A DNA stretch of 64,000 nucleotides, from contig JAUIAM010000001.1 of the NCBI GenBank assembly GCA_030425485.1, positions 124,001 to 188,000 of the forward strand, read 5' to 3'. The notes beneath the pieces were generated by a model. That model did not search any database and was not told the DNA's origin. It was given only the letters and a program-made list of their open reading frames with translations. A program made the translations under genes and the position numbers. Below, piece by piece: positions 1 to 16,478 of the stretch; the first letter of the stretch is position 1, and every line of letters begins with the position of its first letter. This DNA comes from Verrucomicrobiia bacterium. Lineage in GTDB: Bacteria; Verrucomicrobiota; Verrucomicrobiia; Opitutales; Cerasicoccaceae.

Positions 1-344
1 GGGTGATTGGTATCCTCCGGGGGGATGCTCTTCCAAACGCCAGTCCAGTACGCGTTGGGCACGGCTGCGCCCGAACTGATGTCGGACCGAGCCGTTACAC
101 GCTGATCGGTGCCGGCCGTCCGTTGCAACTCTGCCAAAGCCAGGTTGAGCCCCAAGAGCGCATTCTGGCGGGCCTCAAACATTGTGCTCTGCCGGGTCGC
201 AAGCTTAAGCTCAACATTGACCAGTGAGGTCAGACTCATCATTAAGAGGACAACAAAGCCCATCAGCATAAGTGCGATGATGAGCGCAAATCCGCGCTTT
301 CTTGAGGGTGAATTGGCGGTGCTTATAGCTATGTGGGAGCGCAT
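1..344 (-). CDS. Verru_Chthon cassette protein A-like pilin-related protein, C-terminally cut by window edge
   Basis: An open frame runs from ATG at 344 off the left edge (114 codons visible, no stop), so only the N-terminus is present. Residues 1-17 are polar and basic and end in RKRGFALII. A hydrophobic helix follows (about 20-40), and then a polar stretch with ALAELQ and DQRVTARSDI. This pattern is characteristic of the Verru_Chthon cassette protein A family, which resembles the PilX-type pilus-assembly protein that goes with type IV pilin-like cassettes in Verrucomicrobia. An in-frame stop lies upstream with no other ATG between, which fixes the start, although no strong ribosome site is visible. 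Cassette partners B, C and D would be expected beyond the window. Family assignment is by pattern only; the function of these cassettes is not established. Confidence 0.75.
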   Translation of the reverse strand, partial: MRSHIAISTANSPSRKRGFALIIALMLMGFVVLLMMSLTSLVNVELKLATRQSTMFEARQNALLGLNLALAELQRTAGTDQRVTARSDISSGAAVPNAYWTGVWKSIPPEDTNH

Positions 345-413
345 TACGAGAGAGGGCTGAGGTAGGTTTTGGGTGTTGTGCTGCTAAGACCATGGCGAGG
401 TCTATGCCGTCAT

Positions 414-1850
414 CTAGTAGATGTCTGGAATTTCATAAGTTTCAGCGGGCTGGTAAGGCTCAGTGCCAACATGCTCCGCCCATGCGTGGATGGTGTCGTG
501 GGCATGGTGATAGGCGGGGTGAATGGCATTGATCTGTGTGGCCAGCCAGTTCTCCAGCCATGGCGAGCAGATGCTGCCGGCCAGTGAGGCCTGCAAGGCC
601 TCTGCGTGTAGTTTGGCCTGTCCGTGGTTCTCTTTGATATAACCAAGATTCCTCCAGCCGATGGCGCCCATGGCTCGGGTGTTGTCGTGCTGGCGGCAGG
701 CCACATACATGTGAGTGCCTTTAATGTGTCGCCAAGCTTCATCCACGCGCGCGGTCAATTTTTGCACAAGGTTAACACGAGTCTGCCAGTTTTTCGCCTC
801 GCCGATTCGATCGAGTGCGAGGGTCAATTGCTCCGCGTGGGCGTCATGAATACGTCCGTCGTGCAAGGCGGCACCGATCAGAAAGAAAACGTTGAGTGTG
901 ATATCAAAGGGCGCGATCTGCCACAGTTCGGTGCTGTAGCGGCTCCAGCCTGTGGCACAGACACCTTTCAGGGCTTTAACTTCTTCGCACAGCTTGGCCC
1001 AGCCCTCGGCGTTTTCTACCCGCTTATCAAGATGCGGGAGGTTTACCATGGAGCCGTCCCCGCCCTTGTAGGCGGCGGCGCCCCAGAGGTTGGCGCCAGC
1101 CTGGGCAAAGCGGTCGATCACTTCACGTGAATAAGGGCCGCTGTCTCCGCCGGGTTGCCCTTGGTATCCCCAGACCATGATGTCAACCTGTTTGAGGAAG
1201 TGGCTCAGTTCCTGGATATCCCACTCGATCATCATGTCGTGCCAGAGCATTGGCCGAATGCCCCGCTCATTTACGATGTCCAGCAGCGGCTGATAATGAT
1301 GGCAGAACAGTGCGGCTTTGCTGTGTTCTTTCAGGTAGGCCTGTCCTGCTTCGCTCTGGGCGAAGCACCACGACTCATCCCCGCCCAGGTGCAGGTACTT
1401 GACGTCGGGGAAGAGGTCCATCATATCGCGCACCATGCCCGAAATCAGCTCGGCGGCTCCGTCGGCCAGGGGATTGATACTGGCGATGTTGTTGGGCTCC
1501 TCAAGCATGTGCGCGTAGTTATCAAAGCGCAGGAAACTCTCCATGTGGCCGAGCGTTTGTACCAACGGGATGATTTCCAGTTCAAGTGCCTTGGCCTCAT
1601 CGCTGATTTTCTGAATCTGCTCGCGGGAATAGTGGCTGGCGTTGCGGAATCGCTGGTCCACTTCCCAGGGGAACATGTCTTCCCATTCTAGCAGGACTGC
1701 GTTGTACCCCGCGTAGCGAATGATTCGCAAGTGTTCCAGGAGGCGATCAAAGGTTGGTGGCACGCCCTTGAAATCTATGTGGGCAATGCGCCACTGGATT
1801 TTCGGTTCGGGCTCATTTAACATCGGATTGATCTGGTTTTTGATAGACAT
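414..1850 (-). CDS. GH20 beta-N-acetylhexosaminidase-like glycosidase, no signal peptide
   Basis: 478 residues. A TIM-barrel-like layout starts near residue 20 and contains the GH20 catalytic signature HLGGDES with the Asp-Glu pair at 158-159. In this family the Glu is the acid/base and the Asp orients the substrate N-acetyl group. There is no signal peptide and no recognisable GH20b domain, so it probably acts in the cytoplasm on imported GlcNAc- or GalNAc-containing oligosaccharides. The start at 1850 has an AAGAAG-like ribosome site just upstream. The sulfatase at 6793 and the secreted GH20 at 19204 suggest the strain degrades sulfated amino-sugar glycans, but the substrate cannot be read from sequence. 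Confidence 0.85.
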   Translation of the reverse strand: MSIKNQINPMLNEPEPKIQWRIAHIDFKGVPPTFDRLLEHLRIIRYAGYNAVLLEWEDMFPWEVDQRFRNASHYSREQIQKISDEAKALELEIIPLVQTLGHMESFLRFDNYAHMLEEPNNIASINPLADGAAELISGMVRDMMDLFPDVKYLHLGGDESWCFAQSEAGQAYLKEHSKAALFCHHYQPLLDIVNERGIRPMLWHDMMIEWDIQELSHFLKQVDIMVWGYQGQPGGDSGPYSREVIDRFAQAGANLWGAAAYKGGDGSMVNLPHLDKRVENAEGWAKLCEEVKALKGVCATGWSRYSTELWQIAPFDITLNVFFLIGAALHDGRIHDAHAEQLTLALDRIGEAKNWQTRVNLVQKLTARVDEAWRHIKGTHMYVACRQHDNTRAMGAIGWRNLGYIKENHGQAKLHAEALQASLAGSICSPWLENWLATQINAIHPAYHHAHDTIHAWAEHVGTEPYQPAETYEIPDIY

Positions 1851-2397: not shown

Positions 2398-5300
2398 ATG
2401 ATAAAGCACCTACCCCTCATTACCCTGGCCATTTATTTGGCCTTTCAACCTATGAATGCGATCGTGCTCGTAAGCTACGATCCTGCGCGTCATAATGTCT
2501 TTTCTTCCGGAGATTTTTCTGACCCGGAGGGTACAACGTTCGTTCGCAATACGGGGTCTGGCTATCTAGGTGCAGGCTATGACTTTTCTGGTGTTGGCTG
2601 GGAAAGGGGATCGGGGATGGGTGGTCTGCACCCCATGCATAACATCACACTCATATCACCGCTGCATGGGATACAGGCCGAGCACAATGAATCCCAGATC
2701 GGGAGCACTTACTATTTCGTGGGTGCGGACAACGAGCTGACATCCAATCGAATTGCTCGAATGCAGACGACCAAGGTGGCGACTCCCGGTTATGAATATA
2801 GAGACTCGATCGGTGATACGTCCATTGGCACCTTTGACCGTACATTTCGCTCCGACGAACAGCTTAATGTTTACCGCATATTGGATGTCCGGGATAGAAT
2901 TCCCAATAGTAATGGTGATGCTACAAATGACCACCTTCTCTTCCTTTATGGGAGCCAAAGCAGCTCAAACTCGGGGCCTATCATTGGCGAATCCCGGACC
3001 TGGACCTGGACACAAAATGCCTGGACAGGTTCTATCCAGCCTCGTTTTCTCGAGAGTAGCAACAGGGATAATACTCGATACTGGACATTGGGAGACTCGG
3101 GTAGTCCCGCTTTTATTGAGAGAACAGAACCTGACGGGTCTAAAAGCCTACACATCGCTGGAACCGCCTTTACCAGTGGTTCATATGGAAGCCTCTACAC
3201 CGGTTTTGCGGAGGAGGGAGAGGTTACTTTAGGCGGCCAGACTTATGCCTACGATCCGGGCAAAGACATCAACGCGCTGCTTCGCGAGGACGGTTACGCA
3301 CTCAAGTACACTATTTTTAACGACCCCACGAACGTCGAAGATACCGCCGCGCGTTGGACGGGCTCAGCAGGCGTCCATCTCTTCTCTTCCGGGAACTGGA
3401 GCACCAGCGCCAGTCCCCATACCGAATCGGTGATCCTGAATGCCTCAGAAGCCAATGGCGTTACGACGCTCAATGTCAATCAGGCGGATCGGGTGATTCG
3501 TGGCATGCTTTTCGAAGACTCTGCCGCTATTGGCGGGTTTACCATCGATGGTTCGCACGCTTTGACACTGGACCGGGTCGGCCTGCGCAATGAATCCTCC
3601 GCCACGCAGACCTTTAACGTGGATTTGATTTTGTCCGAATCCCAAAACTGGGAAGCCACCCATGGAGGCTTCGTCTTCAATGGCGGGCTGGATACCGGAG
3701 AGGGCCATATCGCAGTGGTAGATGGCCCCGGCGACACGACGATCAGCGGCGATATCTCAGGCGCAGGCGGGTTGGCCAAAGATGGGACCGGAAGCCTGAC
3801 CCTTGATGGCATAAGCACGAATACGGGCATAACGTTTATCCACAAGGGAACCTTACAGGTCGGAGAGAGCGGACTGCTCTCCAGCGAATCCACTGTGGAC
3901 TTTACCAGTGTCGACCCGACGGCCCGCCTGGCACTGGATAGCCGAAGCCAGACGATTGGCGGATTAAACTCCTCTCATGGCGGCACGGGTCACGTGCAGC
4001 TTGGCGGAGGTGGTCTGACCGTTGATTCCAACAATGATCTTCACTTTTCCGGGGATATTTCCGGGGAGGGAGACTTTATCAAAACGGGGATCGGCCAGCT
4101 CATTCTGTCGGGAGAAAATAGCTATGAGGGTGACTTGATCATCGAGAATGGGGCGGTACGAAACACATCGGCCAATGCCCTGTCTGAGCACTCCAACATC
4201 CGCTTCACCGGAGCCTCTGCCTCAAGTGGAACGTTAGAACTGGCCGGGGGCGATTACGCCCTGACGCTGGGCGGCGGAGCGGGGGAGATCAGCATTCAGG
4301 GCAATGGTGGATTTGGCGCGTATGGCGGTGATGTGCACATTACCCTGAATGAGGGCGAAGTCCTCGACATGCGCAGCGATCATTTCCGCGGACTCGTCCT
4401 GGGATCGAGAAATTCCGACGGCACGGTAGAGCTGACCAACGACATCCGGCTCGGTAATGCCTATACGGGGACGACCGGCTTTCGCTCTTTCTTGGTTGAT
4501 GACGGTGATGCGGCGATCGATGGTCGTCTCTCCGGCGACCTGACCGAAATGGCGGGTCGCTCGGCTGGGTTTCAGCTTTATAAAAGAGGTGTCCTTGAGC
4601 TGACCGGAAATAACAGCTACACGGGTGACACCAGACTGCAGGACGGTGTGCTGCGTTTAAGCTCTTCCGGGGCGCTTTCCAGTCATTCCAATCTCGATTT
4701 AAGCGGTGGTGTGGTTGAGTTTGCGCATGGCAGGACTGACGTTCAGATGTGGCTTGGAACAGGCGCTGGGCAGGTCCGTTTCACGGATGGAGGCGGTGGT
4801 TTTAGTGCCGCTGGGGCCGACCGTTCCGTTACGCTCGACGGCGGGGCTAATCTTGTGTGGGGGCAGGAGCATTTCGTAGCGGACGGCAGCGATCCGCTGA
4901 AGCTTTCCTCTAAAGCCTCTGATGCGACGGTGACATTGACGAATCACCTAAGCCTCGGTTCTGGATCGGGAAACCGCATCGTCAGTGTGGCTGACGGCTC
5001 GGCTGACGCAGACGCCCGCCTGAGTGGAAACCTTACGGAAGAGTCCGGCGCAACCCGTGGCTTGACCAAGCGAGACGAGGGCACGCTCGAACTTACGGGT
5101 ACCAATACCTACACGGGAGCGACCCGTATTGAGGCTGGCGTCTTGCGTATTGGGTCGGCTTCGTCATTGCCCAGTGGTGGAAACACCCAGCTCGTGGGCG
5201 GTATACTGGAATACGCGACGGGTGGGGCAAATGTGAGTGCCGACCTCGGCTGGGGCGCGGGCCAGGTGAGCTTTTCATCTGGAGAGGACGGAGGCTTTAG

Positions 5301-6750
5301 CGTCAGTGGTGCAGATCGCACATTGACGTTAAATAACGGTGCGAATCTGCAGTGGGGCGCGGATGGCTTCCGCACAGGCTCGGGGGACCTGTTGCTTTCT
5401 TCAACCGGGTCTGACTCCACCATCACGATCGATAATAATCTCAGCTTGGGCACGGGGGACGGCTGGGTGAGTCGCACCATTAACGTTGCGAATGGCTCTG
5501 CTGCCGTGGATGCCCGCCTTTCCGGCAATATTACAGGTACGGCGAATCGATTTGTGAAGTCGGGTGACGGCACGCTGGAACTAACGGGCTCTAATGAAAC
5601 CTTTGAGGCCAGAATCCATATCGAGGGCGGCGCGCTTCGGCTTGGCTCGGAGAATGCCATCCCCGCAACGAAGAGAGAAGGGGTAGATTACGATGGTGAA
5701 CCTGCTGTTTTCTTCCATCAGAACATCACCCTGGCTGGCGGCGTACTCGAACTCGCGCACAGTGATTACACTGGTTACATAGGCTATGCGCGTAATATCT
5801 TTTTTGACAATGACGCTGGGATGGGGGGCTTCAGTGCTGTAGGTGAAGATCGTACGGTGACCATACTTGCAACGGATCAAGAAAGCACAGATCTCGTTTG
5901 GGGAAATAGGGAACCGCTCGGTGCGAACTATACCTTGCGCTTCTCTTCTCCCAGTGCGGACGCCACCCTGATCTTTACCAACGGTCTGACGATGACGGCT
6001 GGTGGGAATAATTACCGCGCGATTCGGGTAGATAATGGTTCGGCCGATGTGGATGCGCGCATCACTGGACTTATCAAAGACCAGAATGGTCAATACGGCT
6101 TGGTGAAGACAGGACATGGTACGCTTGAGCTTACTAACAACAACAGGTACACGGGGGAGACGCACGTCAAGGAGGGTCGCCTCCTCATCCAGAATACCCA
6201 GTGGCTGGCCCAGGGGACAACCTATGTATACGATGGAGCGACGCTGGGCGGCGGCGGTGCCATCGGCAGCGATGTGGTGATGATGTCCGGGTCTCACATG
6301 GCCCCGAGCAATACCGGGGCAACCCGCATCACCTTCTACCAGAACGTTGTCTTTGAGGCGGGCTCGCACATACACCTGTACCTGGACGGTGGCCTGGACG
6401 TCGGCACAAACTACGATTACTTTAATTTTGGCGGGACGCTGGATATCGAAGGTGCCTTCCTTAACTTTACCTTTGCCGATGGCTACACAAAGATCGCCAA
6501 CGCGGGTGATGCTTACCATTTCCTAAGGGCTGGCGATGGGCTGACGGGTATGTTTGCGGAAAACACCATCGATATGGTGCTGGATGATCAGCTGTATACA
6601 TTCGTTGTGAATTACTTCGGCAATCAGGTATCCGTTCGGCTAGACCGTATATCCGCCGTTCCTGAGCCCGCAGGTTTTGCGCTCTTTGGCCAACTCATCG
6701 CTGTGATGTTCATACTGCGCCGCCGGCGAGCTCGCACCAAGCAATGCTAG
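2398..6750 (+). CDS. Giant surface protein: trypsin-like peptidase domain, autotransporter-type beta repeats, PEP-CTERM anchor
   Basis: 1450 residues. A signal peptide covers about residues 1-21. The first 310 residues look like a trypsin-fold peptidase, with a His-rich SPLHGIQAEHN segment near 87-97 and GDSGSP at 232-237, which would place the nucleophile at Ser234. The rest is built of glycine/asparagine-rich parallel beta-helix segments with about six copies of the autotransporter-associated strand motif (K.G.G.LELTG.N.YTG.T....G.L). The C-terminus is VPEPAGF followed by a hydrophobic helix and RRRR, a typical PEP-CTERM sorting signal cleaved by exosortase. No outer-membrane autotransporter barrel is present, so display probably depends on PEP-CTERM sorting. 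The His and Asp of the triad are only tentatively placed. The sulfatase follows 42 bases downstream. Confidence 0.85.
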   Translation: MIKHLPLITLAIYLAFQPMNAIVLVSYDPARHNVFSSGDFSDPEGTTFVRNTGSGYLGAGYDFSGVGWERGSGMGGLHPMHNITLISPLHGIQAEHNESQIGSTYYFVGADNELTSNRIARMQTTKVATPGYEYRDSIGDTSIGTFDRTFRSDEQLNVYRILDVRDRIPNSNGDATNDHLLFLYGSQSSSNSGPIIGESRTWTWTQNAWTGSIQPRFLESSNRDNTRYWTLGDSGSPAFIERTEPDGSKSLHIAGTAFTSGSYGSLYTGFAEEGEVTLGGQTYAYDPGKDINALLREDGYALKYTIFNDPTNVEDTAARWTGSAGVHLFSSGNWSTSASPHTESVILNASEANGVTTLNVNQADRVIRGMLFEDSAAIGGFTIDGSHALTLDRVGLRNESSATQTFNVDLILSESQNWEATHGGFVFNGGLDTGEGHIAVVDGPGDTTISGDISGAGGLAKDGTGSLTLDGISTNTGITFIHKGTLQVGESGLLSSESTVDFTSVDPTARLALDSRSQTIGGLNSSHGGTGHVQLGGGGLTVDSNNDLHFSGDISGEGDFIKTGIGQLILSGENSYEGDLIIENGAVRNTSANALSEHSNIRFTGASASSGTLELAGGDYALTLGGGAGEISIQGNGGFGAYGGDVHITLNEGEVLDMRSDHFRGLVLGSRNSDGTVELTNDIRLGNAYTGTTGFRSFLVDDGDAAIDGRLSGDLTEMAGRSAGFQLYKRGVLELTGNNSYTGDTRLQDGVLRLSSSGALSSHSNLDLSGGVVEFAHGRTDVQMWLGTGAGQVRFTDGGGGFSAAGADRSVTLDGGANLVWGQEHFVADGSDPLKLSSKASDATVTLTNHLSLGSGSGNRIVSVADGSADADARLSGNLTEESGATRGLTKRDEGTLELTGTNTYTGATRIEAGVLRIGSASSLPSGGNTQLVGGILEYATGGANVSADLGWGAGQVSFSSGEDGGFSVSGADRTLTLNNGANLQWGADGFRTGSGDLLLSSTGSDSTITIDNNLSLGTGDGWVSRTINVANGSAAVDARLSGNITGTANRFVKSGDGTLELTGSNETFEARIHIEGGALRLGSENAIPATKREGVDYDGEPAVFFHQNITLAGGVLELAHSDYTGYIGYARNIFFDNDAGMGGFSAVGEDRTVTILATDQESTDLVWGNREPLGANYTLRFSSPSADATLIFTNGLTMTAGGNNYRAIRVDNGSADVDARITGLIKDQNGQYGLVKTGHGTLELTNNNRYTGETHVKEGRLLIQNTQWLAQGTTYVYDGATLGGGGAIGSDVVMMSGSHMAPSNTGATRITFYQNVVFEAGSHIHLYLDGGLDVGTNYDYFNFGGTLDIEGAFLNFTFADGYTKIANAGDAYHFLRAGDGLTGMFAENTIDMVLDDQLYTFVVNYFGNQVSVRLDRISAVPEPAGFALFGQLIAVMFILRRRRARTKQC

Positions 6751-6792: not shown

Positions 6793-8226
6793 ATGACAGC
6801 ACCCAATATTCTGCTTATTACCACGGACCAGCAACGCTGGGACACGCTTCACTGTGGAGGGAATCCGCACATTTTTACCCCACACTTGAATTGGCTGGCC
6901 GATACAGGGGTTTCCTTTACGCGCGCTTACAGCGACTGTCCGGTGTGTATGCCAGCTCGTGCTACCGTAATGACCGGCATGCCGGCCTATGTCCATGGGG
7001 CGACTGCGAACACCGATGCCGAGCCAATGCGTGGGCATGATACCTTGCCCGGAATGCTTGTCCAAGCTGGCTACCAAACCCGCGCACAGGGAAAAATGCA
7101 CTTTCATCCGATGCGCAAGAAGTTCGGCTTTGAGGAAATGGAGACCTCATACGATTACTACCGTTTTATGGACCAGTATTTCCCGGGACAGTCGGGATCG
7201 CGTCACGGACAGGGGCAAAATGAGCTTGAACCCATTATTGGTACCGCCGGTACGGAGCACACCTTGTCGCGTTGGGTTGTGAATCGATCAATTGACTTTA
7301 TGGAAACCCGCGACGAGGAGCGTCCATTTTTTCTATGGACCAGCTTCAGCAAACCGCATCCTCCGTTTGACCCGTCGTTACCATTCTGGGAGATTTATCG
7401 CGGCATGCCTATGCCCGAAGCCATTACTGGAGATTGGTCGGCATCACCAGAAAAGATTCCCCCGGGCTTCATGCGAATGAGCTCCATGCTTGGTAATGGT
7501 TACCGATTTGGACCTGAGCAGCTACAGCAAATTCGGCGTGCATACTATGCTTGCATCAGCGAGGTTGATGCGGCCCTTGGGCTCCTTTTTGCCCGTATGC
7601 GCGAGCTAGGACTGCTGGATAATACGTGGATCATGTTTACCTCTGACCATGGAGAAATGCTCGGGGACCATTACATGAGTGGCAAAGGGTTGTTCTTTGA
7701 AGGGGCAGCTCACGTCCCCATGTTAATAAGGCCTCCGGGGCAATTTGATCAGGAAGCATTGCGTGGTAACGTGTGCAATGAGATTGTCTGTCTGCAGGAT
7801 ATTCTGCCGACGGTTCTCAACTTGGCAGACATTGGCGAGAAATGCCCTGAAGAAGCCCAAGGCTTTGATTTGAGGGAAATGGCTACAGGGCAAAACAAGC
7901 GTGAAAACTTGATCGGTGTCTGCGGTGATATTTATGCCGTGACTTCCAAAGAGTGGAAATATCACTACTGTGCCGCGGGCAATGACTGCTTGCTCTTTAA
8001 CCTGATGGATGACCCGGAGGAAAGGCGTGACTTGAGCAAGGCTCATCCAGAGCGCTGTAAGGAAATGCATCACCTTTTGCTGGAGGAGTTGAAGGATTAT
8101 TCACATCTGGATCTCAATGACGGGCAGATCCCAATTAAAAAAGCGCTGTCGATAGAAGACGAGCGCCGCTGGAATTCATGGCCGGGTTTTCACAGCACAG
8201 ATGTGGAAACAGATATGCTGCATTGA
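6793..8226 (+). CDS. Sulfatase, Cys-type (needs formylglycine activation)
   Basis: 477 residues. TDQQ at 11-14 supplies N-terminal metal ligands. The signature C-M-P-A-R at 52-56, followed by ATVMTG, is the C-x-P-x-R motif in which Cys52 is converted to formylglycine. SDHGEMLGDH (Asp285, His286) gives further metal ligands. No signal peptide is visible, which is unusual for polysaccharide sulfatases and suggests cytoplasmic action or choline-sulfatase-like use on small sulfated compounds. AGGA lies ten bases before the ATG. It follows the large PEP-CTERM gene closely and may be cotranscribed with it. The activating enzyme (FGE or anSME) is not in the window. Confidence 0.9.
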   Translation: MTAPNILLITTDQQRWDTLHCGGNPHIFTPHLNWLADTGVSFTRAYSDCPVCMPARATVMTGMPAYVHGATANTDAEPMRGHDTLPGMLVQAGYQTRAQGKMHFHPMRKKFGFEEMETSYDYYRFMDQYFPGQSGSRHGQGQNELEPIIGTAGTEHTLSRWVVNRSIDFMETRDEERPFFLWTSFSKPHPPFDPSLPFWEIYRGMPMPEAITGDWSASPEKIPPGFMRMSSMLGNGYRFGPEQLQQIRRAYYACISEVDAALGLLFARMRELGLLDNTWIMFTSDHGEMLGDHYMSGKGLFFEGAAHVPMLIRPPGQFDQEALRGNVCNEIVCLQDILPTVLNLADIGEKCPEEAQGFDLREMATGQNKRENLIGVCGDIYAVTSKEWKYHYCAAGNDCLLFNLMDDPEERRDLSKAHPERCKEMHHLLLEELKDYSHLDLNDGQIPIKKALSIEDERRWNSWPGFHSTDVETDMLH

Positions 8227-8599: not shown

Positions 8600-8675
<76 letters not shown>

Positions 8676-8730
8676 TAACTAATTGGAATAAACTGACTTA
8701 AGTGATTATTGTTGCGCTCGTTTATGGGCG

Positions 8731-8753
8731 TTTGTAACCTCGTTTTGTAACCC
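8731..8753. promoter_or_regulatory. Paired 10-bp repeats, left end (possible integrase arm sites)
   Basis: TTTGTAACCT at 8731-8740 and TTTGTAACCC at 8744-8753, 13 bases apart start to start, lie 55 bases inside the left att repeat and just before the integrase ATG. The same spacing recurs at 16290 and 16303 inside the right end. Tyrosine integrases bind short repeated arm sites flanking the core, which is the likely role; this is inferred. Confidence 0.55.
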
Positions 8754-8766
8754 AAAGAAATTCGCC

Positions 8767-9834
8767 ATGTTCGACCCCAAGGCAAAAACGCCTCAAGCAT
8801 CGTTTGTAAAGGTAGCAGAATGCCTTTACCGTAATTCATCATCGGGTACATATTACGCGCTCGTTAAAAGAAACGGGAAGCAAATACGGCGTTCCTTGCG
8901 AACTCAAGACCGAAAACTCGCTGAACGTCGCTTAAAGGAGTTTCGCGGGCAGGCCGCCCGCCTCAGTACCTCGACCGAGGATCGGGGCCTGACCTTTGCC
9001 GAGCTTGGCCAGCGCTGGTTCCCCATTGCCACCGCCAACCTCAAGCCATCATCCGTTGACCGAATCCGGCGTTGCCTGAAAAGCCTGAATAAGCCCTTTG
9101 GCGCATCCACCCTCACTGGCCTTACCCGGCAGGACTGCGAGACCTGGGCCGCTCGCCGCGCAAAGGGCATTGCCGCCTCAACCTTTAATCAGGACTTGAT
9201 CGTCCTGAAAGGCGTCCTGCAATACGCGGTCGATTCCGGCCTCCTACTGGACAGCCCCGCGCGCACCCTCAAGCGCAAGCGTGTCGTGGACAAGCCGATC
9301 CTCATTCCCTCGGTGTCGGAATTTGTAACCCTGCTTGTCACCCTCGAAAAGCTCGACCAACGCGCCCGCAACGCCATCCCTCTGGTCAAGCTGCTGGCCT
9401 ACTCGGGTATGCGTCTCGGCGAGGCCACACACATTATCTGGCGAGAAGTCGATTTCGAGCGCAACAGCTTCACTGTGTCGGGTGGGGAAGTGGGCACGAA
9501 AAACCACCTCGTGCGCGTCGTCCCGCTCTTTCCCACGCTGGCCGCCTTCCTGCAAGAACTCCATCAGGCCCAAAGTTGTCCCGACTCCAGCGCACGCATT
9601 ATCCCCATCGAGTCGGCCAAGAAGGCCATCGGCACCGCCTGCACCTTGGCCAAGCTCCCGCACTTCACCCACCATTGCCTACGCCATTACTTCGTCAGCA
9701 ACGCCATCGAGAAGGGGGTTGATTTCAAAACCATCGCGGCATGGATTGGTCACAAGGACGGCGGTCTGCTCGTCGCTAAAACCTACGGCCATCTCCGCGA
9801 CACCCATTCCTTCGAGATGGCCCAGCGGCTGTAG
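8767..9834 (+). CDS. Tyrosine site-specific recombinase (integrase)
   Basis: 355 residues. An arm-binding-like N-terminus (about 25-60), a SAM-like core-binding domain (75-160) and a C-terminal catalytic domain are visible. Active-site residues can be placed: Arg216 in YSGMRLGEA, His303/Arg306 in HCLRH, His329 in WIGHKD and the nucleophile Tyr340 in KTYGHLR. It lies next to the tRNA-Ile2 target and reads away from it, as integrases of tRNA-targeting islands do. It should catalyse integration and excision between the 40-bp repeats. It shows no feature of integron integrases, so it is not expected to act on the attC-like sites further right. Confidence 0.93.
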   Translation: MFDPKAKTPQASFVKVAECLYRNSSSGTYYALVKRNGKQIRRSLRTQDRKLAERRLKEFRGQAARLSTSTEDRGLTFAELGQRWFPIATANLKPSSVDRIRRCLKSLNKPFGASTLTGLTRQDCETWAARRAKGIAASTFNQDLIVLKGVLQYAVDSGLLLDSPARTLKRKRVVDKPILIPSVSEFVTLLVTLEKLDQRARNAIPLVKLLAYSGMRLGEATHIIWREVDFERNSFTVSGGEVGTKNHLVRVVPLFPTLAAFLQELHQAQSCPDSSARIIPIESAKKAIGTACTLAKLPHFTHHCLRHYFVSNAIEKGVDFKTIAAWIGHKDGGLLVAKTYGHLRDTHSFEMAQRL

Positions 9835-9847
9835 CTACTTCGTCAGC

Positions 9848-9884
9848 TTGACAAATGCTTTTCCGTAATGCAGTATTACTGCAT
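9848..9884 (+). promoter_or_regulatory. Promoter/operator of the AbrB-PIN toxin-antitoxin pair
   Basis: TTGACA at 9848-9853 can serve as a -35. A perfect 8-1-8 palindrome, ATGCAGTA-T-TACTGCAT, covers 9868-9884 where the -10 would lie and ends at the antitoxin start. An AbrB-type antitoxin that represses its own operon by binding such a palindrome is the usual arrangement; here it is inferred. Confidence 0.5.
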
Positions 9885-10119
9885 GTCAGCAGTTCTATCA
9901 GTCAGCAAACGCGGCACCGTGACCCTGCCGCCGGAGTATCGGCGCAAGCTGGGTCTCGACAAGCTTCCGAATCCCCTCGTGATCATCGAGGAGAAGGACG
10001 GCAAGCTTACGCTCGAACCCGCCGCCGCTGTTCCTGTTCGCGACATTCCGGCCAAGCGCATTCGTGAGTGGATCGCCGATGATGAGGCCGCGATGGCCGC
10101 TTTCAAGAAACGCAAGTGA
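9883..10119 (+). CDS. AbrB/MazE-type antitoxin
   Basis: 78 residues from ATG 9883. The N-terminal swapped-hairpin AbrB domain (SVSKRGTVTLPPEYRRKLGL) binds DNA, and the acidic C-terminus (REWIADDEAAMAAF) probably wraps the toxin. An earlier ATG at 9868 would add five residues but falls in the operator palindrome, so 9883 is preferred. Its stop overlaps the toxin start by four bases, which couples translation. It follows the integrase by 48 bases and may stabilise the element. Confidence 0.85.
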   Translation: MSAVLSVSKRGTVTLPPEYRRKLGLDKLPNPLVIIEEKDGKLTLEPAAAVPVRDIPAKRIREWIADDEAAMAAFKKRK

Positions 10120-10538
10120 AGCTGTTTCTGGATTCGAGCGTGCTCCTGTCGGCCTCCGCCTCGGCCAAGGGTGCAAGCCGCTTCCTGATTGAGAACGCAG
10201 AATCATTTGACTGGTCGCTCATCAGTTCGGCCTATTGCCTGGCCGAGACTCAAAAGAATCTGCCCAAGCTTGGCGCAAGCGCCGAAAGTAACTTCAAGCG
10301 CCTTGTGCGGAATGAGGTTGAGTGGGTAGGGGATGCGCTCTCGCCTGAACAAATCCTTATCTTTCCGAAGGCCAAAGATCGCCCTGTCGTCCTCTCTGCA
10401 CTCGCTGCTAAGGTGGATGTCCTCCTGACACTCGACCGCCAAGACTTCATGGGGCTACTTGGGAATCAGGTTTACGGTGTTTCCATCCGCACACCCGGCG
10501 ACTGGTTGCTTGAATGCCGCGAGTGTGGGGTGATATAG
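10116..10538 (+). CDS. PIN-domain toxin (VapC-like ribonuclease)
   Basis: 140 residues starting at a GTG that overlaps the antitoxin stop (GTGA). PIN acidic residues are placed at Asp6 (FLDSSVLL), Glu44 (LAETQKN), Asp88 (AKDRPVV) and Asp107/Asp110 (LTLDRQDF), enough for the Mg-dependent nuclease centre. VapC-type toxins typically cleave tRNA or rRNA. Together with the AbrB-type antitoxin it forms a complete type II pair, here probably an addiction module of the integrative element. The RNA target is unknown. Confidence 0.85.
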   Translation: MKLFLDSSVLLSASASAKGASRFLIENAESFDWSLISSAYCLAETQKNLPKLGASAESNFKRLVRNEVEWVGDALSPEQILIFPKAKDRPVVLSALAAKVDVLLTLDRQDFMGLLGNQVYGVSIRTPGDWLLECRECGVI

Positions 10539-10563
10539 GTAAATTGTACCATTTCTACTATTC

Positions 10564-11316
10564 ATGGAAACCCCGAATCAATTTTACGGAGAGTCTAAAG
10601 AAGAATTTCTTAAATGGATCGAGCAGCGATCACTTGAGATTCAAATCGAACGTAAATTCTTCGAGGGAAGTGATTTGCTCCCCAAAGAGATGCCTGAGCC
10701 GCCGGAGTGGACAAAAAAAGCCTACGAAAAGCTTAAATTGACCACTTGCCCGTCGTTTATTAAGGCAATCAAGTCTTTGCAAACTAACAAGAATGATGTT
10801 TACTCTATGGGTGTTTTCATGGGGAGCATGCATGCTTTTAGGAATCAAGAGAGAGTAGTGCCTGAGCGAGCAGTGAAGGATTTTAAAGAGACCTTCGCTC
10901 CCTCTGATAAGAGCCTTGAGATGTTTCAGACTTTAGTTAGTCCAGGCAAGGGCTGGGGGATCAGTCGATGGAAAGCATGGCGGTTCCGAACGGATATGCA
11001 ACGAAGGCTAATGATTAGTTACCTTCTCTCTACAGATCAGGCCAAGGAGTTTCACAAAGGGTATCTAAAAGGACTGGATTTTTCTATTCCTTACGACGCA
11101 GACGACGGAACCGCAGATAGAAAGGAGATTCTTTCAACGCTTTGGCTAGTTTGGCCCAAAGCTATTGAATGCGGGTCAGTCGCGGAACTACACAAAGTCC
11201 TGAATGCTGCGCTTAATTACCAGGCCGACCCGGAGGCACCACCCAAACGCCTAGAAGCGATTTGTCGCGAAATTGGGCTGAAATTGGCTGGTCGTGGACG
11301 CCCTAAAAAATCCTAA
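10564..11316 (+). CDS. Unknown protein with C-terminal AT-hook-like tail
   Basis: 250 residues, charged and mostly helical in appearance, with no signal peptide or membrane segment. I do not recognise a family. The last residues, GRGRPKKS, form an AT-hook-like motif (GRP core flanked by basic residues), which suggests minor-groove DNA contact. It lies between the toxin-antitoxin pair and the AlpA-like gene on the same strand, so a role in element biology is plausible. Start ATG 10564 is the first in frame; the codon choice is more AT-rich than in the integrase. Confidence 0.6.
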   Translation: METPNQFYGESKEEFLKWIEQRSLEIQIERKFFEGSDLLPKEMPEPPEWTKKAYEKLKLTTCPSFIKAIKSLQTNKNDVYSMGVFMGSMHAFRNQERVVPERAVKDFKETFAPSDKSLEMFQTLVSPGKGWGISRWKAWRFRTDMQRRLMISYLLSTDQAKEFHKGYLKGLDFSIPYDADDGTADRKEILSTLWLVWPKAIECGSVAELHKVLNAALNYQADPEAPPKRLEAICREIGLKLAGRGRPKKS

Positions 11317-11374
11317 ATTCACATTTTCGCACGTTTAGGTATTAAAGGTCAGGCATTTATGGCATAAACTGGGC

Positions 11375-11590
11375 ATGCAAACGCATGTTCAACATCACCA
11401 AACGAAAAGCCGCCGTCTCGCTTACACCCGTGAAGAGGCGTCGGAAATCCTCGGGTTGTCACCGGCTACGGTTGACCGCCTGACGAAACGCAGACTGCTC
11501 CGGCCGTCTCGGGCGACACGTCGCCCCATGTATCCGCATTGGGAGCTAGAGCGCTTCCTTCGCGAAACCTCTGAGGGGATCGAGCTATGA
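11375..11590 (+). CDS. AlpA/excisionase-like HTH protein
   Basis: 71 residues. The centre reads YTREEASEILGLSPATVDRLTKRRLLRPSR, a MerR-like winged helix-turn-helix of the excisionase (HTH_17) type, followed by the usual basic and aromatic end (YPHWELERFL). Such proteins act as recombination directionality factors or activate integrase and rep genes. Its stop overlaps the start of a 51-codon gene (ATGA at 11587), making it the first gene of a tight rep operon. Confidence 0.8.
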   Translation: MQTHVQHHQTKSRRLAYTREEASEILGLSPATVDRLTKRRLLRPSRATRRPMYPHWELERFLRETSEGIEL

Positions 11591-11742
11591 GCGTGCGAAG
11601 CTCCAAGCGCATACGCTCAACACCAGCGGCATACGGTCGGAACCGCCATCCCCGACTTGATATGCTGCGTGCAGCTTATCCCGCCATCTCTACTGTTTTA
11701 TCTTCCAGAGGTGAAATCGCGGAAAGGGGGTGGGCATGCTGA
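11587..11742 (+). CDS. Small basic protein, translationally coupled between AlpA-like gene and Rep
   Basis: 51 codons, ATG at 11587 overlapping the previous stop and ending at TGA 11740-11742, four bases beyond the start of Rep. It is rich in Arg/Lys at the N-terminus (VRSSKRIRS). No family is recognised. Overlaps on both sides argue that it is translated, either as a product or as a coupling leader for Rep. Confidence 0.45.
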   Translation: MSVRSSKRIRSTPAAYGRNRHPRLDMLRAAYPAISTVLSSRGEIAERGWAC

Positions 11743-12536
11743 CAGGTACGGTTTCGCCCTACGTCCCGAAGTCGTGGTTTCACCCGCTGGGGATTTACAA
11801 GGTCGTCGCTGGCCTCATGCCGCGCCTGCCTGATGTCTCGGGCTGTCTCTTCCTGACCTTCACGGTCAATCAACTCTACTTTGACGGTCCCGGCTCTGCC
11901 TTCGACTACTCCCGTGACCGTCTGCGCAAGCTCTTCTATGCGCTACGTAAGGGTGTCGATTGGGAAGGCAAGACCTACCGCATGGACGCGCCCTATTGCG
12001 TGAAGGTCGAGTTTCACCGAAACGGCTGGGCGCACTTCCATGTTATCTTCCTGACAAAGCGATTCTTGCCAGGTGCACTCCTGAATCATCTCTGGGGCCT
12101 CGGGCGAACCAACGTCAAGCGCATCAGTAATCAGGATTTCCACTACCTCCTGAAATACGTCTGCAAGGGTGGCCAAATTCCCGATTGGGTTTTACAGCGT
12201 GAGCGCATCCGCATCTTTCAGACTTCGCGGGGCTTCTACAAAGAGACGCCAGACAAGCCACAGAAAGTAGAGCCCGCAGAAATCGAAGAGGTCGACGAAG
12301 CGCCCGAGGAAAAGGAATCGCTGACTATCGGCGAACGCATCAAGCGCTGGTCCTATCGCGCGCTCTTTCAGGATGGAGCGCAACACTACCACCTGCTGCG
12401 CCTTCAGGTTCCATACTGGGAGCTACTTGGGCATCTCGTGCTACGGCTTACGCAGGCCGAGCGGTACCTTGGGCAAGGCATGATCGCCATCACCAAACCC
12501 TTTCAACTCGAAACCCTCGAATCCTATCAATTATGA
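11736..12536 (+). CDS. HUH-type rolling-circle replication initiator (Rep)
   Basis: 266 residues from ATG 11736, preceded by a strong purine ribosome site (GGAAAGGGGG); a GTG at 11730 would add two. Motif 1 is LFLTFTV (about 38-44), motif 2 is the metal-binding HFH at 100-102 in GWAHFHVIF, and motif 3 is YLLKYVCK with Tyr137 and Tyr141 as candidate nucleophiles. These mark the HUH endonucleases that nick DNA to start rolling-circle replication in plasmids and single-stranded DNA phages. The stop overlaps the next gene (ATGA). It may replicate the excised circle. Homology is weak by eye, but the three motifs are in order and correctly spaced. Confidence 0.75.
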   Translation: MLTGTVSPYVPKSWFHPLGIYKVVAGLMPRLPDVSGCLFLTFTVNQLYFDGPGSAFDYSRDRLRKLFYALRKGVDWEGKTYRMDAPYCVKVEFHRNGWAHFHVIFLTKRFLPGALLNHLWGLGRTNVKRISNQDFHYLLKYVCKGGQIPDWVLQRERIRIFQTSRGFYKETPDKPQKVEPAEIEEVDEAPEEKESLTIGERIKRWSYRALFQDGAQHYHLLRLQVPYWELLGHLVLRLTQAERYLGQGMIAITKPFQLETLESYQL

Positions 12537-12877
12537 CACAAAACACAGAAAGCAAAACCACCAGTAAGGTGAAGATTGAAAACAACGGACTCTTCGTGCG
12601 CGGAGTGCCCGTTTCCACGACGGCTCGCTATGGGCGCAAGAAAGACGGTTCGGGCTCATTCGTGATTATCACGACCGAGCTTGCCACCCAACCGGGGCTT
12701 ATCCTCTGGGAGCAGTTCCTTGACCCGAGCCAGCGAACCGACATCCAGGTCAAAGACGGCAACGTCACGGCCTTCCCCAAGCCGAAGGAGTACGAGCCGA
12801 TGACGCTCAAGGCCAACCGCGTCAAAATGCGCGGCGATACCCTTGTCCTGTCCAGCGCTGAGCTTGTCGCATCCTAA
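12533..12877 (+). CDS. Small protein coupled to Rep, possible OB-fold ssDNA-binding protein
   Basis: 114 residues, start overlapping the Rep stop by four bases. It is beta-rich (NGLFVRGVPVSTTARY, SFVIITTEL, VTAFPKP) without a signal peptide. Size, position directly after an HUH Rep and beta content resemble the gene V-type single-strand-binding proteins of filamentous phages, but I cannot recognise a defining motif, so this is an inference from context. A strong hairpin follows the stop and ends the operon. Confidence 0.55.
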   Translation: MTQNTESKTTSKVKIENNGLFVRGVPVSTTARYGRKKDGSGSFVIITTELATQPGLILWEQFLDPSQRTDIQVKDGNVTAFPKPKEYEPMTLKANRVKMRGDTLVLSSAELVAS

Positions 12878-12889
12878 ACGGGTGAATGA

Positions 12890-12935
12890 GGGCGGAGCGG
12901 ATGCACGCTTTAGCGTGCGCCGCCCGCCCTTTTCC
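12890..12935 (+). terminator. Hairpin terminator after the rep operon
   Basis: Inner stem GCACGC-TTTA-GCGTGC (12903-12918) inside an outer GGGCGG/CCGCCC pairing, followed by TTTTCCTTGTTT. It lies 13 bases after the stop of the Rep-coupled gene. Confidence 0.7.
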
Positions 12936-13379
12936 TTGTTTACATGAACAATAACTGTACGGGAATTACTCAACAACACCCAACAAGCTCACCATTCCCT
13001 TATTCGTCCTGCATTATTACCTTATGCATATAAACGCGATGTAGCCCCTGACTTGCTTTACTCTGCCTTTTTGAGCGCAGTTTTCCAATGAGCACATCCC
13101 ATATATGATGAACCCTCTGGGGTAGTGTGTTTTGTTGTAGACATGCAGCAATACCAAAGCACTTCATGTCGTGTGACACTTCGCGCGGCCCAATATTCTC
13201 GCAGGTATGTGACTTCAGGAATTAGCCATTAGCTCATCTGGAGCTAGGTGCATGATATCCGAAAGTAAATCAATATTATATTTGAATAATGCCTATTTAG
13301 ATCAAGTCCAGTATAGCTAGAATATCTGACCTTGACAGAAATGACTACAGAACGATATCTATGAATTCATCAATTACTT
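12936..13379. other. AT-rich stretch without a supported gene
   Basis: About 440 bases between the rep operon terminator and the first cassette gene. No open frame with coding features is present. If the cassette array once had an attI platform it should lie here, next to 13380, but I see neither an integron integrase gene nor a recognisable attI. Confidence 0.5.
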
Positions 13380-13388
13380 GTTCTAAAA

Positions 13389-13850
13389 ATGAAAATCTTT
13401 CTCGTCGGAATATTTTCTATTATCCTCGGGCAGACTGCCTATTCTAGAATTGGAGAAACACCTAAGCAGTGTATCGAGCGTTACGGAGAACCGTTTAACG
13501 TAATCAGAGAAACGAAAACACTTGTTTTCAAGAACGATGATTTTCTATTCTGGCTTCGCTTTTGGAATGGTGTCGCCCACCAAATTACCTACGAGAAAAA
13601 TAAAGAGCCTGATCCATTCTCATCAAACGATCTGAGCAGAAACGAAATAATCATTTTACTTGAGAAGAATTCTAGAGGCGAAAAGTGGAAAGATATTTTT
13701 GAAGGACGTTTATGGGAGACTGAGAACTCCAAAGATAAAATGAAGGCGATGTCTTCAGGAAGGTCTTTATTTATTGAGACTATCGAGTTCGATCAGTATC
13801 TGGAAGGGCAGGAAAACGAAACCGAAAGAAAAGATCTTCGCGGCTTTTGA
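13389..13850 (+). CDS. Secreted protein of unknown function (cassette 1)
   Basis: 153 residues. A short signal peptide (MKIFLVGIFSIILGQTAYS) precedes a segment with RIGETPKQCIERYGEP, then an alternating polar domain. Similar small exported proteins with an IGET..QC..RYG start are common as hypothetical genes in Verrucomicrobia; no function is known to me. AT-rich codon use differs from the integrase and Rep. It starts two bases after the cassette boundary at 13380-13386, with little room for a ribosome site. Confidence 0.7.
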   Translation: MKIFLVGIFSIILGQTAYSRIGETPKQCIERYGEPFNVIRETKTLVFKNDDFLFWLRFWNGVAHQITYEKNKEPDPFSSNDLSRNEIIILLEKNSRGEKWKDIFEGRLWETENSKDKMKAMSSGRSLFIETIEFDQYLEGQENETERKDLRGF

Positions 13851-13862
13851 CATTAGAAAAAT

Positions 13863-13952
13863 TCAGAACAAAACGACGCAGGCACAGCAGTGAACTAATC
13901 CGAAAATCCTAATAGCCCCAGCGCTTCAGTCGCGATGGCCTCTGCGTTGTCC
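13863..13952. repeat. attC-like site 1 (weakest)
   Basis: Left outer box TCAGAAC 13863-13869, right outer box GTTGTCC 13946-13952. It begins 12 bases after the stop of the preceding gene. Inner arms around AGTGAA (left) and TTCAGT (right) pair partly. The left box matches the reverse complement of its own cassette start (GTTCTAA, 13380) in 6 of 7 positions. The inner structure is poorer than in the other sites. Confidence 0.5.
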
Positions 13953-13958
13953 AAGAAA

Positions 13959-14938
<980 letters not shown>

Positions 14939-14941
14939 AAA

Positions 14942-15340
14942 ATGAAAATGTTGAAAACAATCCTGAAGATCATCGGCTCATTGTTGGTAGCCGCCGTTGG
15001 CCTTTACCTGTTTGTCGTCTTCTTCTCGAGCGTTGAGACAAAATATGAATCCACAGGGACCCTTACCGAGTTTGAATCCAATACAAACGAAACAATCTAT
15101 ATAAAGTTGAACGAATACAGGAGGTGGGTAGGATTTTGGAGCGACTCAGATGGCAGCCTTAATTTAGAGATTCCTAATAAGACAGTTGTATATTACAGAC
15201 ATTTGAGCCAAGCAGGTGACCTCATTCAGATATACGATTGGGACATGAATCTTGTGGGCACGTTCTCCAAGCTAAGCAACGAACTACAGATAAAGATTGG
15301 TCATCGATTTTTCGAAGGTAAGTGTCATGAAATTGAATAG
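14942..15340 (+). CDS. Membrane-anchored small protein of unknown function (cassette 3)
   Basis: 132 residues. One N-terminal hydrophobic helix (about 5-29, LKIIGSLLVAAVGLYLFVVFF) without a clear cleavage site, followed by an exported beta-rich domain of about 100 residues. No family recognised. The ATG follows the cassette boundary GTTATCC by only three bases, so translation may be leaderless or depend on the downstream second ATG. Its TAG stop touches the left box of the next attC-like site. Confidence 0.65.
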   Translation: MKMLKTILKIIGSLLVAAVGLYLFVVFFSSVETKYESTGTLTEFESNTNETIYIKLNEYRRWVGFWSDSDGSLNLEIPNKTVVYYRHLSQAGDLIQIYDWDMNLVGTFSKLSNELQIKIGHRFFEGKCHEIE

Positions 15341-15400
15341 GGAAACCAAGCGCTTGAGACAACGTCGCTAACGAGCCGTCGCCAGAGCTCGACGTTAGTC
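15340..15400. repeat. attC-like site 3
   Basis: Left outer box GGGAAAC 15340-15346, spacer CAAGC, left inner box GCTTGAGAC 15352-15360; right inner box GCCAGAGC 15381-15388, spacer TCGAC, right outer box GTTAGTC 15394-15400. The inner boxes pair if two A residues on the left and one base on the right bulge. Total length 61 bases is typical for attC. The left box matches the reverse complement of its own cassette start (GTTATCC) in 5 of 7. Confidence 0.6.
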
Positions 15401-15416
15401 AGGAAAATTTAAAAGA

Positions 15417-15680
15417 ATGAATTGTTACATCATATCCTATGACAAGGCCGGAGACGGAAGCTATGAAGAGCTTCACGCAGCCATCAAGGAATTTGGCACT
15501 TGGGCGCATGTGACTGAATCCACTTGGGCAGTAAAGACGGAATGGAAAGCGGAAGAAATCAGAGATGACCTGGCTCAGTATTTACCGAAAGGTAGTCGCT
15601 TATTCGTTGTTCGATCAGGAACCGCCGCAGCTTGGCGCAATGTAATTTGCCGGAATGAATGGCTCAAAAAGAACCTCTAG
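15417..15680 (+). CDS. Stand-alone Cas2-like (SinR family) protein (cassette 4, first gene)
   Basis: 87 residues. It begins MNCYIISYDKAGDGSYEEL, continues with FGTWAHVTESTWAVKT and RLFVVRSGTAAAWRN, and ends WLKKNL. This is the ferredoxin-like Cas2/VapD-type fold found in proteins annotated as SinR family, which occur outside CRISPR loci. Classical Cas2 proteins are metal-dependent nucleases or structural partners of Cas1. Here the position equivalent to the catalytic Asp (YDKAGD) is occupied by acid residues, so activity is possible. No cas1, repeat array or other cas gene is present. The stop is two bases before the likely start of a two-helix membrane protein in the same cassette. Confidence 0.8.
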   Translation: MNCYIISYDKAGDGSYEELHAAIKEFGTWAHVTESTWAVKTEWKAEEIRDDLAQYLPKGSRLFVVRSGTAAAWRNVICRNEWLKKNL

Positions 15681-15682
15681 TC

Positions 15683-16099
15683 ATGCAAGATTCTGAACAA
15701 ACCGGCGAAAAAACCTTCAAGATCAAGCGAGGACGCGTCGACTCGCTTTCGCTTTACGAGATTACCGAACATGAATTGAATGTTTTAGAGAACGGAAGCC
15801 CATCCTCACTGCTTCTAAATTTCTCACTAGTTCTACTACCAACAGCGACTTCGTTTCTCATCACACTTCTTACAACTACTATACAATCTGACAGGATGTT
15901 CAGTGTATTTGTCATGTTGGTTATCTGTGGTTATATCTCAGGCTTAATTCTATTGATCCTCTGGTGGAGAAATCGGAAGTCTATAACAGGAATTGTCAGT
16001 CGAATAAGAGATAGAATTCCCCAAGAGGAGCAGACGGAAGGCGAAAACTCTCCAGAGACTAACCAGTCGATGGAGGGCAATGATTTAGGCTGCGCCTAA
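15683..16099 (+). CDS. Two-helix inner-membrane protein paired with the Cas2-like gene (cassette 4, second gene)
   Basis: 138 residues from ATG 15683; an ATG at 15659 in the same frame would overlap the Cas2-like gene and add eight. A cytoplasmic N-terminal segment contains VDSLSLYEITEHELNVLENG, followed by two hydrophobic helices (about 45-70 and 78-100), a WWRNRK basic stop-transfer and an acidic tail. No family name is known to me. The tight spacing and shared cassette boundaries imply that it works with the Cas2-like protein, perhaps as a membrane effector controlled by it. Its TAA stop lies in the hairpin of the following attC-like site. Confidence 0.7.
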   Translation: MQDSEQTGEKTFKIKRGRVDSLSLYEITEHELNVLENGSPSSLLLNFSLVLLPTATSFLITLLTTTIQSDRMFSVFVMLVICGYISGLILLILWWRNRKSITGIVSRIRDRIPQEEQTEGENSPETNQSMEGNDLGCA

Positions 16100-16124
16100 A
16101 TCGTGCCTCATCTCTACGTTAGCA
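16057..16124. repeat. attC-like site 4 (well formed)
   Basis: Left outer box GACTAAC 16057-16063, spacer CAGTC, left inner box GATGGAGGGCA 16069-16079, terminal hairpin GATTTAGGC-TGC-GCCTAAATC 16082-16102, right inner box TGCCTCATC 16104-16112, spacer TCTAC, right outer box GTTAGCA 16118-16124. Dropping two G residues from the left inner box gives exact complementarity. GACTAAC is the exact reverse complement of GTTAGTC at the start of this cassette (15394). The left half overlaps the end of the membrane-protein gene. Confidence 0.75.
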
Positions 16125-16164
16125 AAAAAGGATAAGAGATGGCAACGGCTATGGCTTTACTGCT

Positions 16165-16438: not shown

Positions 16439-16478
<40 letters not shown>

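What the first reader, a model, noticed from the sequence alone, without database searches (positions are those of the whole stretch)
2398..6750. Serine peptidase fused to autotransporter repeats with a PEP-CTERM anchor
Seen: GDSGSP peptidase domain, about six autotransporter-type beta repeats and a PEP-CTERM signal in one 1450-residue protein, but no outer-membrane barrel. In Gram-negative serine autotransporters the barrel exports the passenger; here sorting would rest on exosortase. This is a different display route for a SPATE-like layout.
Basis: partly seen in the sequence, partly recalled or inferred. Interest (0 to 1): 0.5.

Follow-up and report, generated by a model that had tools for sequence, protein, structure and literature searches.

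The report
Protease on repeat stalk, exosortase tail
A bacterium of the Verrucomicrobiota makes a chymotrypsin-like protease joined to an autotransporter-style repeat region that ends in an exosortase sorting tail instead of an outer-membrane pore; the layout looks normal among its relatives but hints at a little-described way to place such proteins outside the cell.

Summary
ORF 2398-6750 (+) encodes 1450 aa: signal peptide, peptidase domain with GDSGSP, six PATR/TIGR02601 repeats, no barrel, and a C-terminal PEP-CTERM tail (under the TIGR02595 cut-off, but with all three parts). No Pfam or NCBIfam model finds the peptidase in this protein. A profile of its relatives matches 80 of 387 phylum genomes, many weakly. 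His96, Asp140 and Ser234 form the triad (all three kept in 46 of 47 strong relatives), and profile and fold searches point to chymotrypsin-like (S1) peptidases. The genome has three exosortases, no autotransporter barrel and a full-length paralogue; its seven PATR ORFs all end in PEP-CTERM-like tails. In a class sample, 26 of 93 genomes have PATR without a barrel, 25 of them with exosortase; 16 of 20 PATR ORFs picked from eight such genomes end in PEP-CTERM. So it is not a SPATE that lost its barrel but one case of a design common in its clade: Sec export, exosortase processing, beta-repeat spacer. Passage across the outer membrane is unknown. A weakly GspK-like gene lies near each paralogue, and these two are mutual best matches, a hint of a type II-like route. 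New variant of a known kind.

The parts
2398..6750 (+). the whole gene, 1450 aa plus stop
2398..2460 (+). signal peptide, about residues 1-21 (cleavage site inferred)
   Evidence: sequence read by eye, no predictor run; the paralogue has AFA at the same place
2461..3315 (+). chymotrypsin-like peptidase domain, residues 22-306
   Evidence: family alignment, PDB profile search, fold search of a weak model
2683..2685 (+). catalytic His96 codon
   Evidence: invariant column in A2; His in 47 of 47 family ORFs
2815..2817 (+). catalytic Asp140 codon
   Evidence: Asp in 46 of 47 family ORFs, Glu in one
3097..3099 (+). catalytic Ser234 codon, in GDSGSP
   Evidence: Ser in 47 of 47 family ORFs
3772..3861 (+). 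PATR repeat 1
   Evidence: G000:C33:127772-127861
4075..4158 (+). PATR repeat 2
4588..4659 (+). PATR repeat 3
5062..5151 (+). PATR repeat 4, the strongest
5551..5643 (+). PATR repeat 5 (24.3 bits alone, under the cut-off)
6100..6189 (+). PATR repeat 6
6658..6747 (+). PEP-CTERM tail, residues 1421-1450: VPEP, hydrophobic stretch, RRRRAR
   Evidence: TIGR02595 14.5 bits, under its cut-off of 16; sequence
414..1850 (-). neighbour: GH20-type glycosidase (context only)
   Evidence: Pfam PF00728 E 5.3e-14
6793..8226 (+). neighbour: sulfatase, same strand, 42 bases downstream (context only)
   Evidence: Pfam PF00884 E 1.8e-50
1..383 (-). neighbour: 5' end of a weakly GspK/PilX-like gene that runs off the window and is interrupted (context only)
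   Evidence: L106 ORFs; family scan; genome search

Best explanation
The gene makes a Sec-exported, chymotrypsin-fold serine endopeptidase carried on a long PATR beta-repeat (probably beta-helical) spacer. The C-terminal PEP-CTERM tail holds the precursor in the inner membrane until an exosortase cuts it off, possibly transferring the protein to another molecule. The mature protein then goes to the outer membrane, the extracellular polysaccharide or the medium. The enzyme probably digests the protein part of glycoprotein or sulfated-polysaccharide material together with the neighbouring sulfatase and glycosidase. Shown by sequence: domain order, conserved triad, tail, exosortases present, barrel absent, conserved paralogue. 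Inferred: activity, beta-helix fold, tail cleavage, final place, substrate. Unknown: how it crosses the outer membrane.
For: All three triad residues kept in 46 of 47 family ORFs. PDB profile search: best hits elastase and trypsin, best E 1.2e-4; 169 sequences at E <= 10, 60 shown, some of them viral 3C-like proteases. Two of 19 members match Pfam Trypsin, both at 20.8 bits against a cut-off of 20.6. Weak model, but the 50 Foldseek rows shown are, by their names, chymotrypsin-fold peptidases; one row has E <= 0.001. PATR x6. Three exosortases, no barrel. All 7 PATR ORFs listed in this genome end in a PEP-CTERM-like tail, one with IPES in place of PEP. 16 of 20 PATR ORFs picked from eight barrel-less genomes end so too. 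20 of 47 family ORFs have such a tail, 13 of the 14 shorter than 400 aa. A Nostoc exosortase mutant is reported to differ in PEP-CTERM proteins of the exoproteome (PMC12188702, heading and passages).
Against: The tail is below the curated TIGR02595 cut-off. The peptidase of this protein has no Pfam or NCBIfam match of its own. Both structure models are poor (pLDDT 46 and 40). 27 of 47 family ORFs show no such tail (one, L023, is cut off before its end), so the tail is not essential to the enzyme. Four of the 20 picked PATR ORFs have another end. Two other genomes of the genus in the sample have no match. Sulfatases are common in this genome (36 matches), so the neighbourhood is weak evidence for the substrate.
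Confidence: 0.68

Rival explanations
1. A true SPATE/S6-type autotransporter that lost its barrel by deletion and now stays in the periplasm or is a relic.
For: Same order of parts (GDSGSP protease, then beta-repeat passenger). Pfam Peptidase_S6 matches 2 of 19 family members, as many as Trypsin does, best E 0.0044; the one identified, L014, has 17.0 bits against a cut-off of 23.3.
Against: A full-length paralogue with the same end, 72% identical in the repeats. No barrel in the genome. The peptidase is found mostly without clear PATR repeats (3 of 20 full-length ORFs scanned are over the PATR cut-off) and is S1-like by PDB profile and triad spacing. The ORF is intact.
Confidence: 0.05
2. An extension of the best explanation, not its opposite: the protein crosses the outer membrane by a type II-like machine in which the neighbouring GspK/PilX-like pseudopilin takes part; the PEP-CTERM tail only sets where it stays, as MYXO-CTERM does with type II secretion in Myxococcus.
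For: A large GspK-like ORF lies about 2 kb from one protease gene and 4 kb from the other; these two ORFs are each other's best matches (55-71% identical; next best 38-45% or less) among 15 such loci in the genome, searched in both directions (families). MYXO-CTERM proteins use type II secretion (PMC11980579, passages). Trypsin homologues with a GlyGly-CTERM tail exist (PMC3237569, passages).
Against: The GspK match is weak (18.2 and 22.4 bits against a cut-off of 130). The copy beside the window's gene is interrupted. The other five PATR ORFs have no such ORF within 38 kb on their contigs. PEP-CTERM genes are frequent here (4 in the 64-kb window by my pattern), so their nearness to pseudopilins in general means little. 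The pair may simply have been copied together. The secretin was not searched for.
Confidence: 0.2
3. The PATR region is the working part (adhesin or matrix scaffold) and the peptidase only trims the protein itself or neighbours in the matrix.
For: Between the paralogues the repeats are more alike (72%) than the peptidase (60%) or the tail (48%).
Against: Most of the family ORFs scanned full length keep the peptidase without PATR above its cut-off (17 of 20), with the triad kept.
Confidence: 0.2

Closest known systems
SPATEs and IgA1 proteases (MEROPS S6, type Va autotransporters; PMC3153244, passages seen)
   Same: N-terminal chymotrypsin-fold serine peptidase with GDSGSP, followed by a long beta-repeat passenger.
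   Different: No C-terminal barrel here; PEP-CTERM tail instead; triad spacing and PDB profile hits are S1-like.
PEP-CTERM/exosortase substrates (Haft 2006, PMC1569441; passages seen)
   Same: Signal peptide, C-terminal motif + TM + basic cluster, exosortases in the same genome.
   Different: Tail scores just under the cut-off; the word autotransporter does not occur in that paper's main text.
GlyGly-CTERM trypsin homologues processed by rhombosortase (PMC3237569; passages seen)
   Same: Secreted trypsin-like peptidase with a C-terminal sorting tail.
   Different: Different motif and different sorting enzyme; no beta-repeat spacer in the passages seen.
Akkermansia muciniphila envelope proteins (PMC4960237; passages seen)
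   Same: A verrucomicrobial genome with an EpsH-like gene and 23 predicted PEP-CTERM proteins, 9 of them seen by mass spectrometry.
   Different: It also makes autotransporter-barrel proteins (nine in outer-membrane fractions), described apart from the PEP-CTERM proteins in the passages seen; the present genome has no barrel.

Membership tests
SPATE / S6 autotransporter | C-terminal autotransporter barrel (PF03797) | tested here: not met
   absent from the protein and the genome
SPATE / S6 autotransporter | Peptidase_S6 domain (PF02395) | tested here: not met
   no match at E 1 in the query; weak match in 2 of 19 relatives, the one identified under the cut-off
SPATE / S6 autotransporter | GDSGS serine motif in the N-terminal part of the passenger (residues 250-270 in SPATEs) | tested here: met
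   GDSGSP at 232-237
SPATE / S6 autotransporter | beta-helical passenger | tested here: inconclusive
   PATR x6, but the passenger model has pLDDT 40
S1 chymotrypsin-like peptidase (clan PA) | His-Asp-Ser triad in this order | tested here: met
   H96, D140, S234; 46 of 47 family ORFs
S1 chymotrypsin-like peptidase (clan PA) | recognised by Pfam Trypsin (PF00089) | tested here: inconclusive
   query not matched; 2 of 19 members match at E about 4e-4
S1 chymotrypsin-like peptidase (clan PA) | chymotrypsin fold | tested here: inconclusive
   the rows shown are chymotrypsin-fold by name, VIA Z 8.3, but the model is weak
PEP-CTERM/exosortase substrate | N-terminal signal peptide | tested here: inconclusive
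   looks like one by eye; no predictor was run
PEP-CTERM/exosortase substrate | C-terminal tail recognised by TIGR02595 | tested here: inconclusive
   14.5 bits against 16; paralogue 25.6 bits
PEP-CTERM/exosortase substrate | exosortase in the same genome | tested here: met
   3 over the cut-off
PEP-CTERM/exosortase substrate | tail cleaved by exosortase | not testable with these tools
   needs a mutant or mass spectrometry
PATR repeat protein | PATR (PF12951) above its cut-off | tested here: met
   115.8 bits against 27

The most novel reading that the evidence does not exclude
In a large part of the Verrucomicrobiota, beta-repeat passengers have been uncoupled from the type V barrel and are placed outside the cell by exosortase together with a type II-like, GspK-containing pseudopilin apparatus: a barrel-free counterpart of autotransport, here carrying a protease.
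Probability: 0.2. Interest if true: 0.7.

Novelty: new variant of a known kind. Interest (0 to 1): 0.38.

Why it matters
PATR is named for transport of autotransporter passengers, yet here it is abundant in genomes without a type V barrel: 26 of 93 in the class sample, 25 of them with exosortase. If PATR passengers reach the outside without a barrel, the repeats must be folded or moved by other means, and the open question of how PEP-CTERM proteins cross the outer membrane (called unclear in PMC12188702) becomes testable with a built-in enzyme reporter.

Tried and rejected
Structure prediction of the peptidase from 8 sequences gave mean pLDDT 46 and of the passenger from one sequence 40; neither places the triad or shows a beta-helix. 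I kept sequences fetched by the genome search and the fetch from genomes out of structure prediction, because its stated rule names other sources. Pseudopilin-PEP-CTERM nearness in general was looked at in 15 loci and dropped: PEP-CTERM genes are too frequent, and my patterns also hit ORFs that are plainly not genes and missed some pseudopilins (L115, L118, L119). The Verru_Chthon cassette A match is 16.8 bits against a cut-off of 332 and was dropped. S1 pocket residues were not assigned, as the alignment there is not firm. In the fold comparisons no SPATE chain was among the rows shown; that absence proves nothing. Papers joining PATR or autotransporter-associated repeats with PEP-CTERM: held none; the two papers do not hold PEP-CTERM; one search gave only the Akkermansia paper; one search held none; the listings (6 papers; 2 papers) show no title on this layout, and of those I looked into PMC1569441, PMC4960237 and PMC3237569 by passages only. 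These searches cover the held open-access library only.

Rows dropped: three duplicate ORFs and the window's own copy in L106 were left out and the window protein was added, giving 47; only ORFs with E <= 1e-15 were used, from the 40 family regions fetched for the best-listed matches and the 7 named loci, not from every match. The full-length Pfam scan covered 20 ORFs including the window protein; L065 and the other family ORFs were not scanned full length. The 20 PATR ORFs are among the best-scoring listed, from eight genomes (G018, G060, G075, G085, G402, G398, G422, G428), not a random draw; the pattern found 15 tails, and the sixteenth (L126) was read by eye after its frame was corrected. 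The cross-table of PATR, barrel and exosortase was tallied by hand from the 93-row tables; it includes the window's own genome.
Full report
What is there. Its phylum is inferred: of 7 named contigs with a relative of the peptidase, six are titled as Verrucomicrobia, Verrucomicrobium or Methylacidiphilum and one as Omnitrophota, and two genomes of the window's own class (G310, G215) carry the same DNA as named Verrucomicrobiaceae and Verrucomicrobium records. ORF 2398-6750 (+) gives 1450 aa: a signal peptide by eye, a domain of about 285 aa, a long region with six PATR/TIGR02601 units, and a PEP-CTERM tail that scores 14.5 bits, just under TIGR02595's 16.

The peptidase. No Pfam or NCBIfam model finds the N-terminal domain in this protein. 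A single-sequence search found a relative in 13 of 387 phylum genomes, the window's own included. An alignment of 19 members (A2) has invariant His75 and Ser213 and nearly invariant Asp119, that is His96, Asp140 and Ser234 of the protein. With A2, 80 of 387 phylum genomes have a match at E <= 0.001, many of them weak and partial. In 47 distinct ORFs (E <= 1e-15) His and Ser are kept in 47 and Asp in 46, with Glu in the other. A profile search of PDB sequences gives elastase and trypsin first (best E 1.2e-4; 169 sequences at E <= 10, some of them viral 3C-like proteases). Of the 19 members, Pfam Trypsin matches 2, Peptidase_S6 2 and Trypsin_2 1, all weakly; the two Trypsin matches just pass the cut-off and the S6 match identified does not. 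The predicted structure is weak (pLDDT 46, pTM 0.56); the 50 Foldseek rows shown are chymotrypsin-fold peptidases by name (best E 5e-4, TM 0.29), and VIA-align gives Z 8.3 with 123 residues at 4.1 A, a value near what its own note calls middling. The triad spacing of 44 and 94 residues resembles chymotrypsin's 45 and 93 (numbering recalled) more than the SPATE Hbp's 28 and 106 (residues from PMC3153244, passages). I conclude, with fair confidence, an S1-like peptidase family that current models mostly miss.

The tail and the repeats in context. Of the 47 family ORFs, 20 end in a PEP-CTERM-like tail, 15 in another recurring end (FYRL/FARV type) and 12 otherwise, one of these cut off by its contig end (L023); of the 14 under 400 aa, 13 have the tail. 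PATR above its cut-off occurs in the window protein, its paralogue and L068 (a genome of another family of the class), 3 of 20 ORFs scanned full length; weaker PATR matches (17-27 bits) occur in L062, L067, L060, L056 and L023. So PATR joined this peptidase in more than one lineage, or was eroded in several; no tree was made. The paralogue (L055, 1449-codon frame) has the same order of parts; identity is 60% in the peptidase, 72% in the PATR region, 45% after it and 48% in the tail.

The genome has 3 exosortases, 19 TIGR02595 tails at E <= 0.001 (the window's own tail is not among them), 21 PATR matches in 7 ORFs and no autotransporter barrel. All 7 PATR ORFs end in a PEP-CTERM-like tail, one with IPES. 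In 93 genomes of the class, PATR is found in 74, barrel in 50, exosortase in 73. My tally from these tables: PATR without barrel 26, of which 25 have exosortase (the exception, G410, is 74% complete); PATR with barrel 48, of which 42 have exosortase; no PATR 19, of which 6 have exosortase. So exosortase is also usual where the barrel is present, and the figures are not corrected for descent. Of 20 well-scoring PATR ORFs from eight barrel-less genomes, 16 end in a PEP-CTERM-like tail and 4 in a FYRL-type end, against 8 of 416 other six-frame ORFs in the same loci, many of which will not be genes.

How it may work. Sec export, anchoring by the tail, and exosortase cleavage follow the published model (PMC1569441, passages; PMC12188702, passages, which says that the way across the outer membrane is unclear). 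MYXO-CTERM proteins, with a like tail, use type II secretion (PMC11980579, passages), and trypsin homologues with GlyGly-CTERM tails are known (PMC3237569, passages). It is therefore of note that each protease gene stands near a large GspK-like ORF, about 2 kb away at the window (1-383 and onward in L106, interrupted) and 4 kb away at the paralogue (L055:15056-18745), and that these two ORFs are mutual best matches among 15 such loci in the genome (59 and 71%; 56 and 70% in the reverse search; next best 38% there). The GspK match itself is weak, and the two genes may simply have been copied together. Neighbours on the window side are a GH20-type enzyme and a sulfatase; on the paralogue's side a HepB-like lyase, 127.7 bits against a cut-off of 600. 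That fits work on glycosylated or sulfated matter, but sulfatases are frequent here (36 matches).

Verdict. The interpretation as a SPATE-like protein with a different display route is half right: it resembles a SPATE passenger in layout, it is not a member, and its barrel-free, PEP-CTERM-tagged form is ordinary in its clade. What may be new is the clade-wide pattern, for which I found no paper (open-access library only, listings and passages).

Noticed in passing
window 8636-16478: An integrated element: a 40-bp exact direct repeat at 8636-8675 (inside tRNA-Met) and 16439-16478 bounds a tyrosine integrase (8767-9834), a MazE-like/PIN toxin-antitoxin pair (9868-10538) and a G2P-type replication protein (11730-12536); an integrated single-stranded-DNA phage or plasmid is likely.
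   Followed up: partly
window 1-383 and L106:8672-12384: A GspK/PilX-like gene beside the protease is split into two frames with a stop between, while its closest relative in the genome is a single open frame.
   Followed up: partly
L136, L137, L138, L139 and 15 of 47 peptidase relatives: A recurring C-terminal end (FYRL/FARV type, no evident membrane stretch) stands where others have a PEP-CTERM tail; it may be another sorting or end domain.
   Followed up: no
window 21790-22722, 51855-52604, 57213-58121: Three further ORFs end in PEP-CTERM-like tails; prepilin-like ORFs (22772-23542, 58211-59122; by eye) lie next to two of them.
   Followed up: no
L055:6652-10998 against window 2398-6750: Between the paralogues the repeat region is more conserved (72%) than the enzyme (60%), the reverse of what one expects if the repeats are only a spacer.
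   Followed up: no
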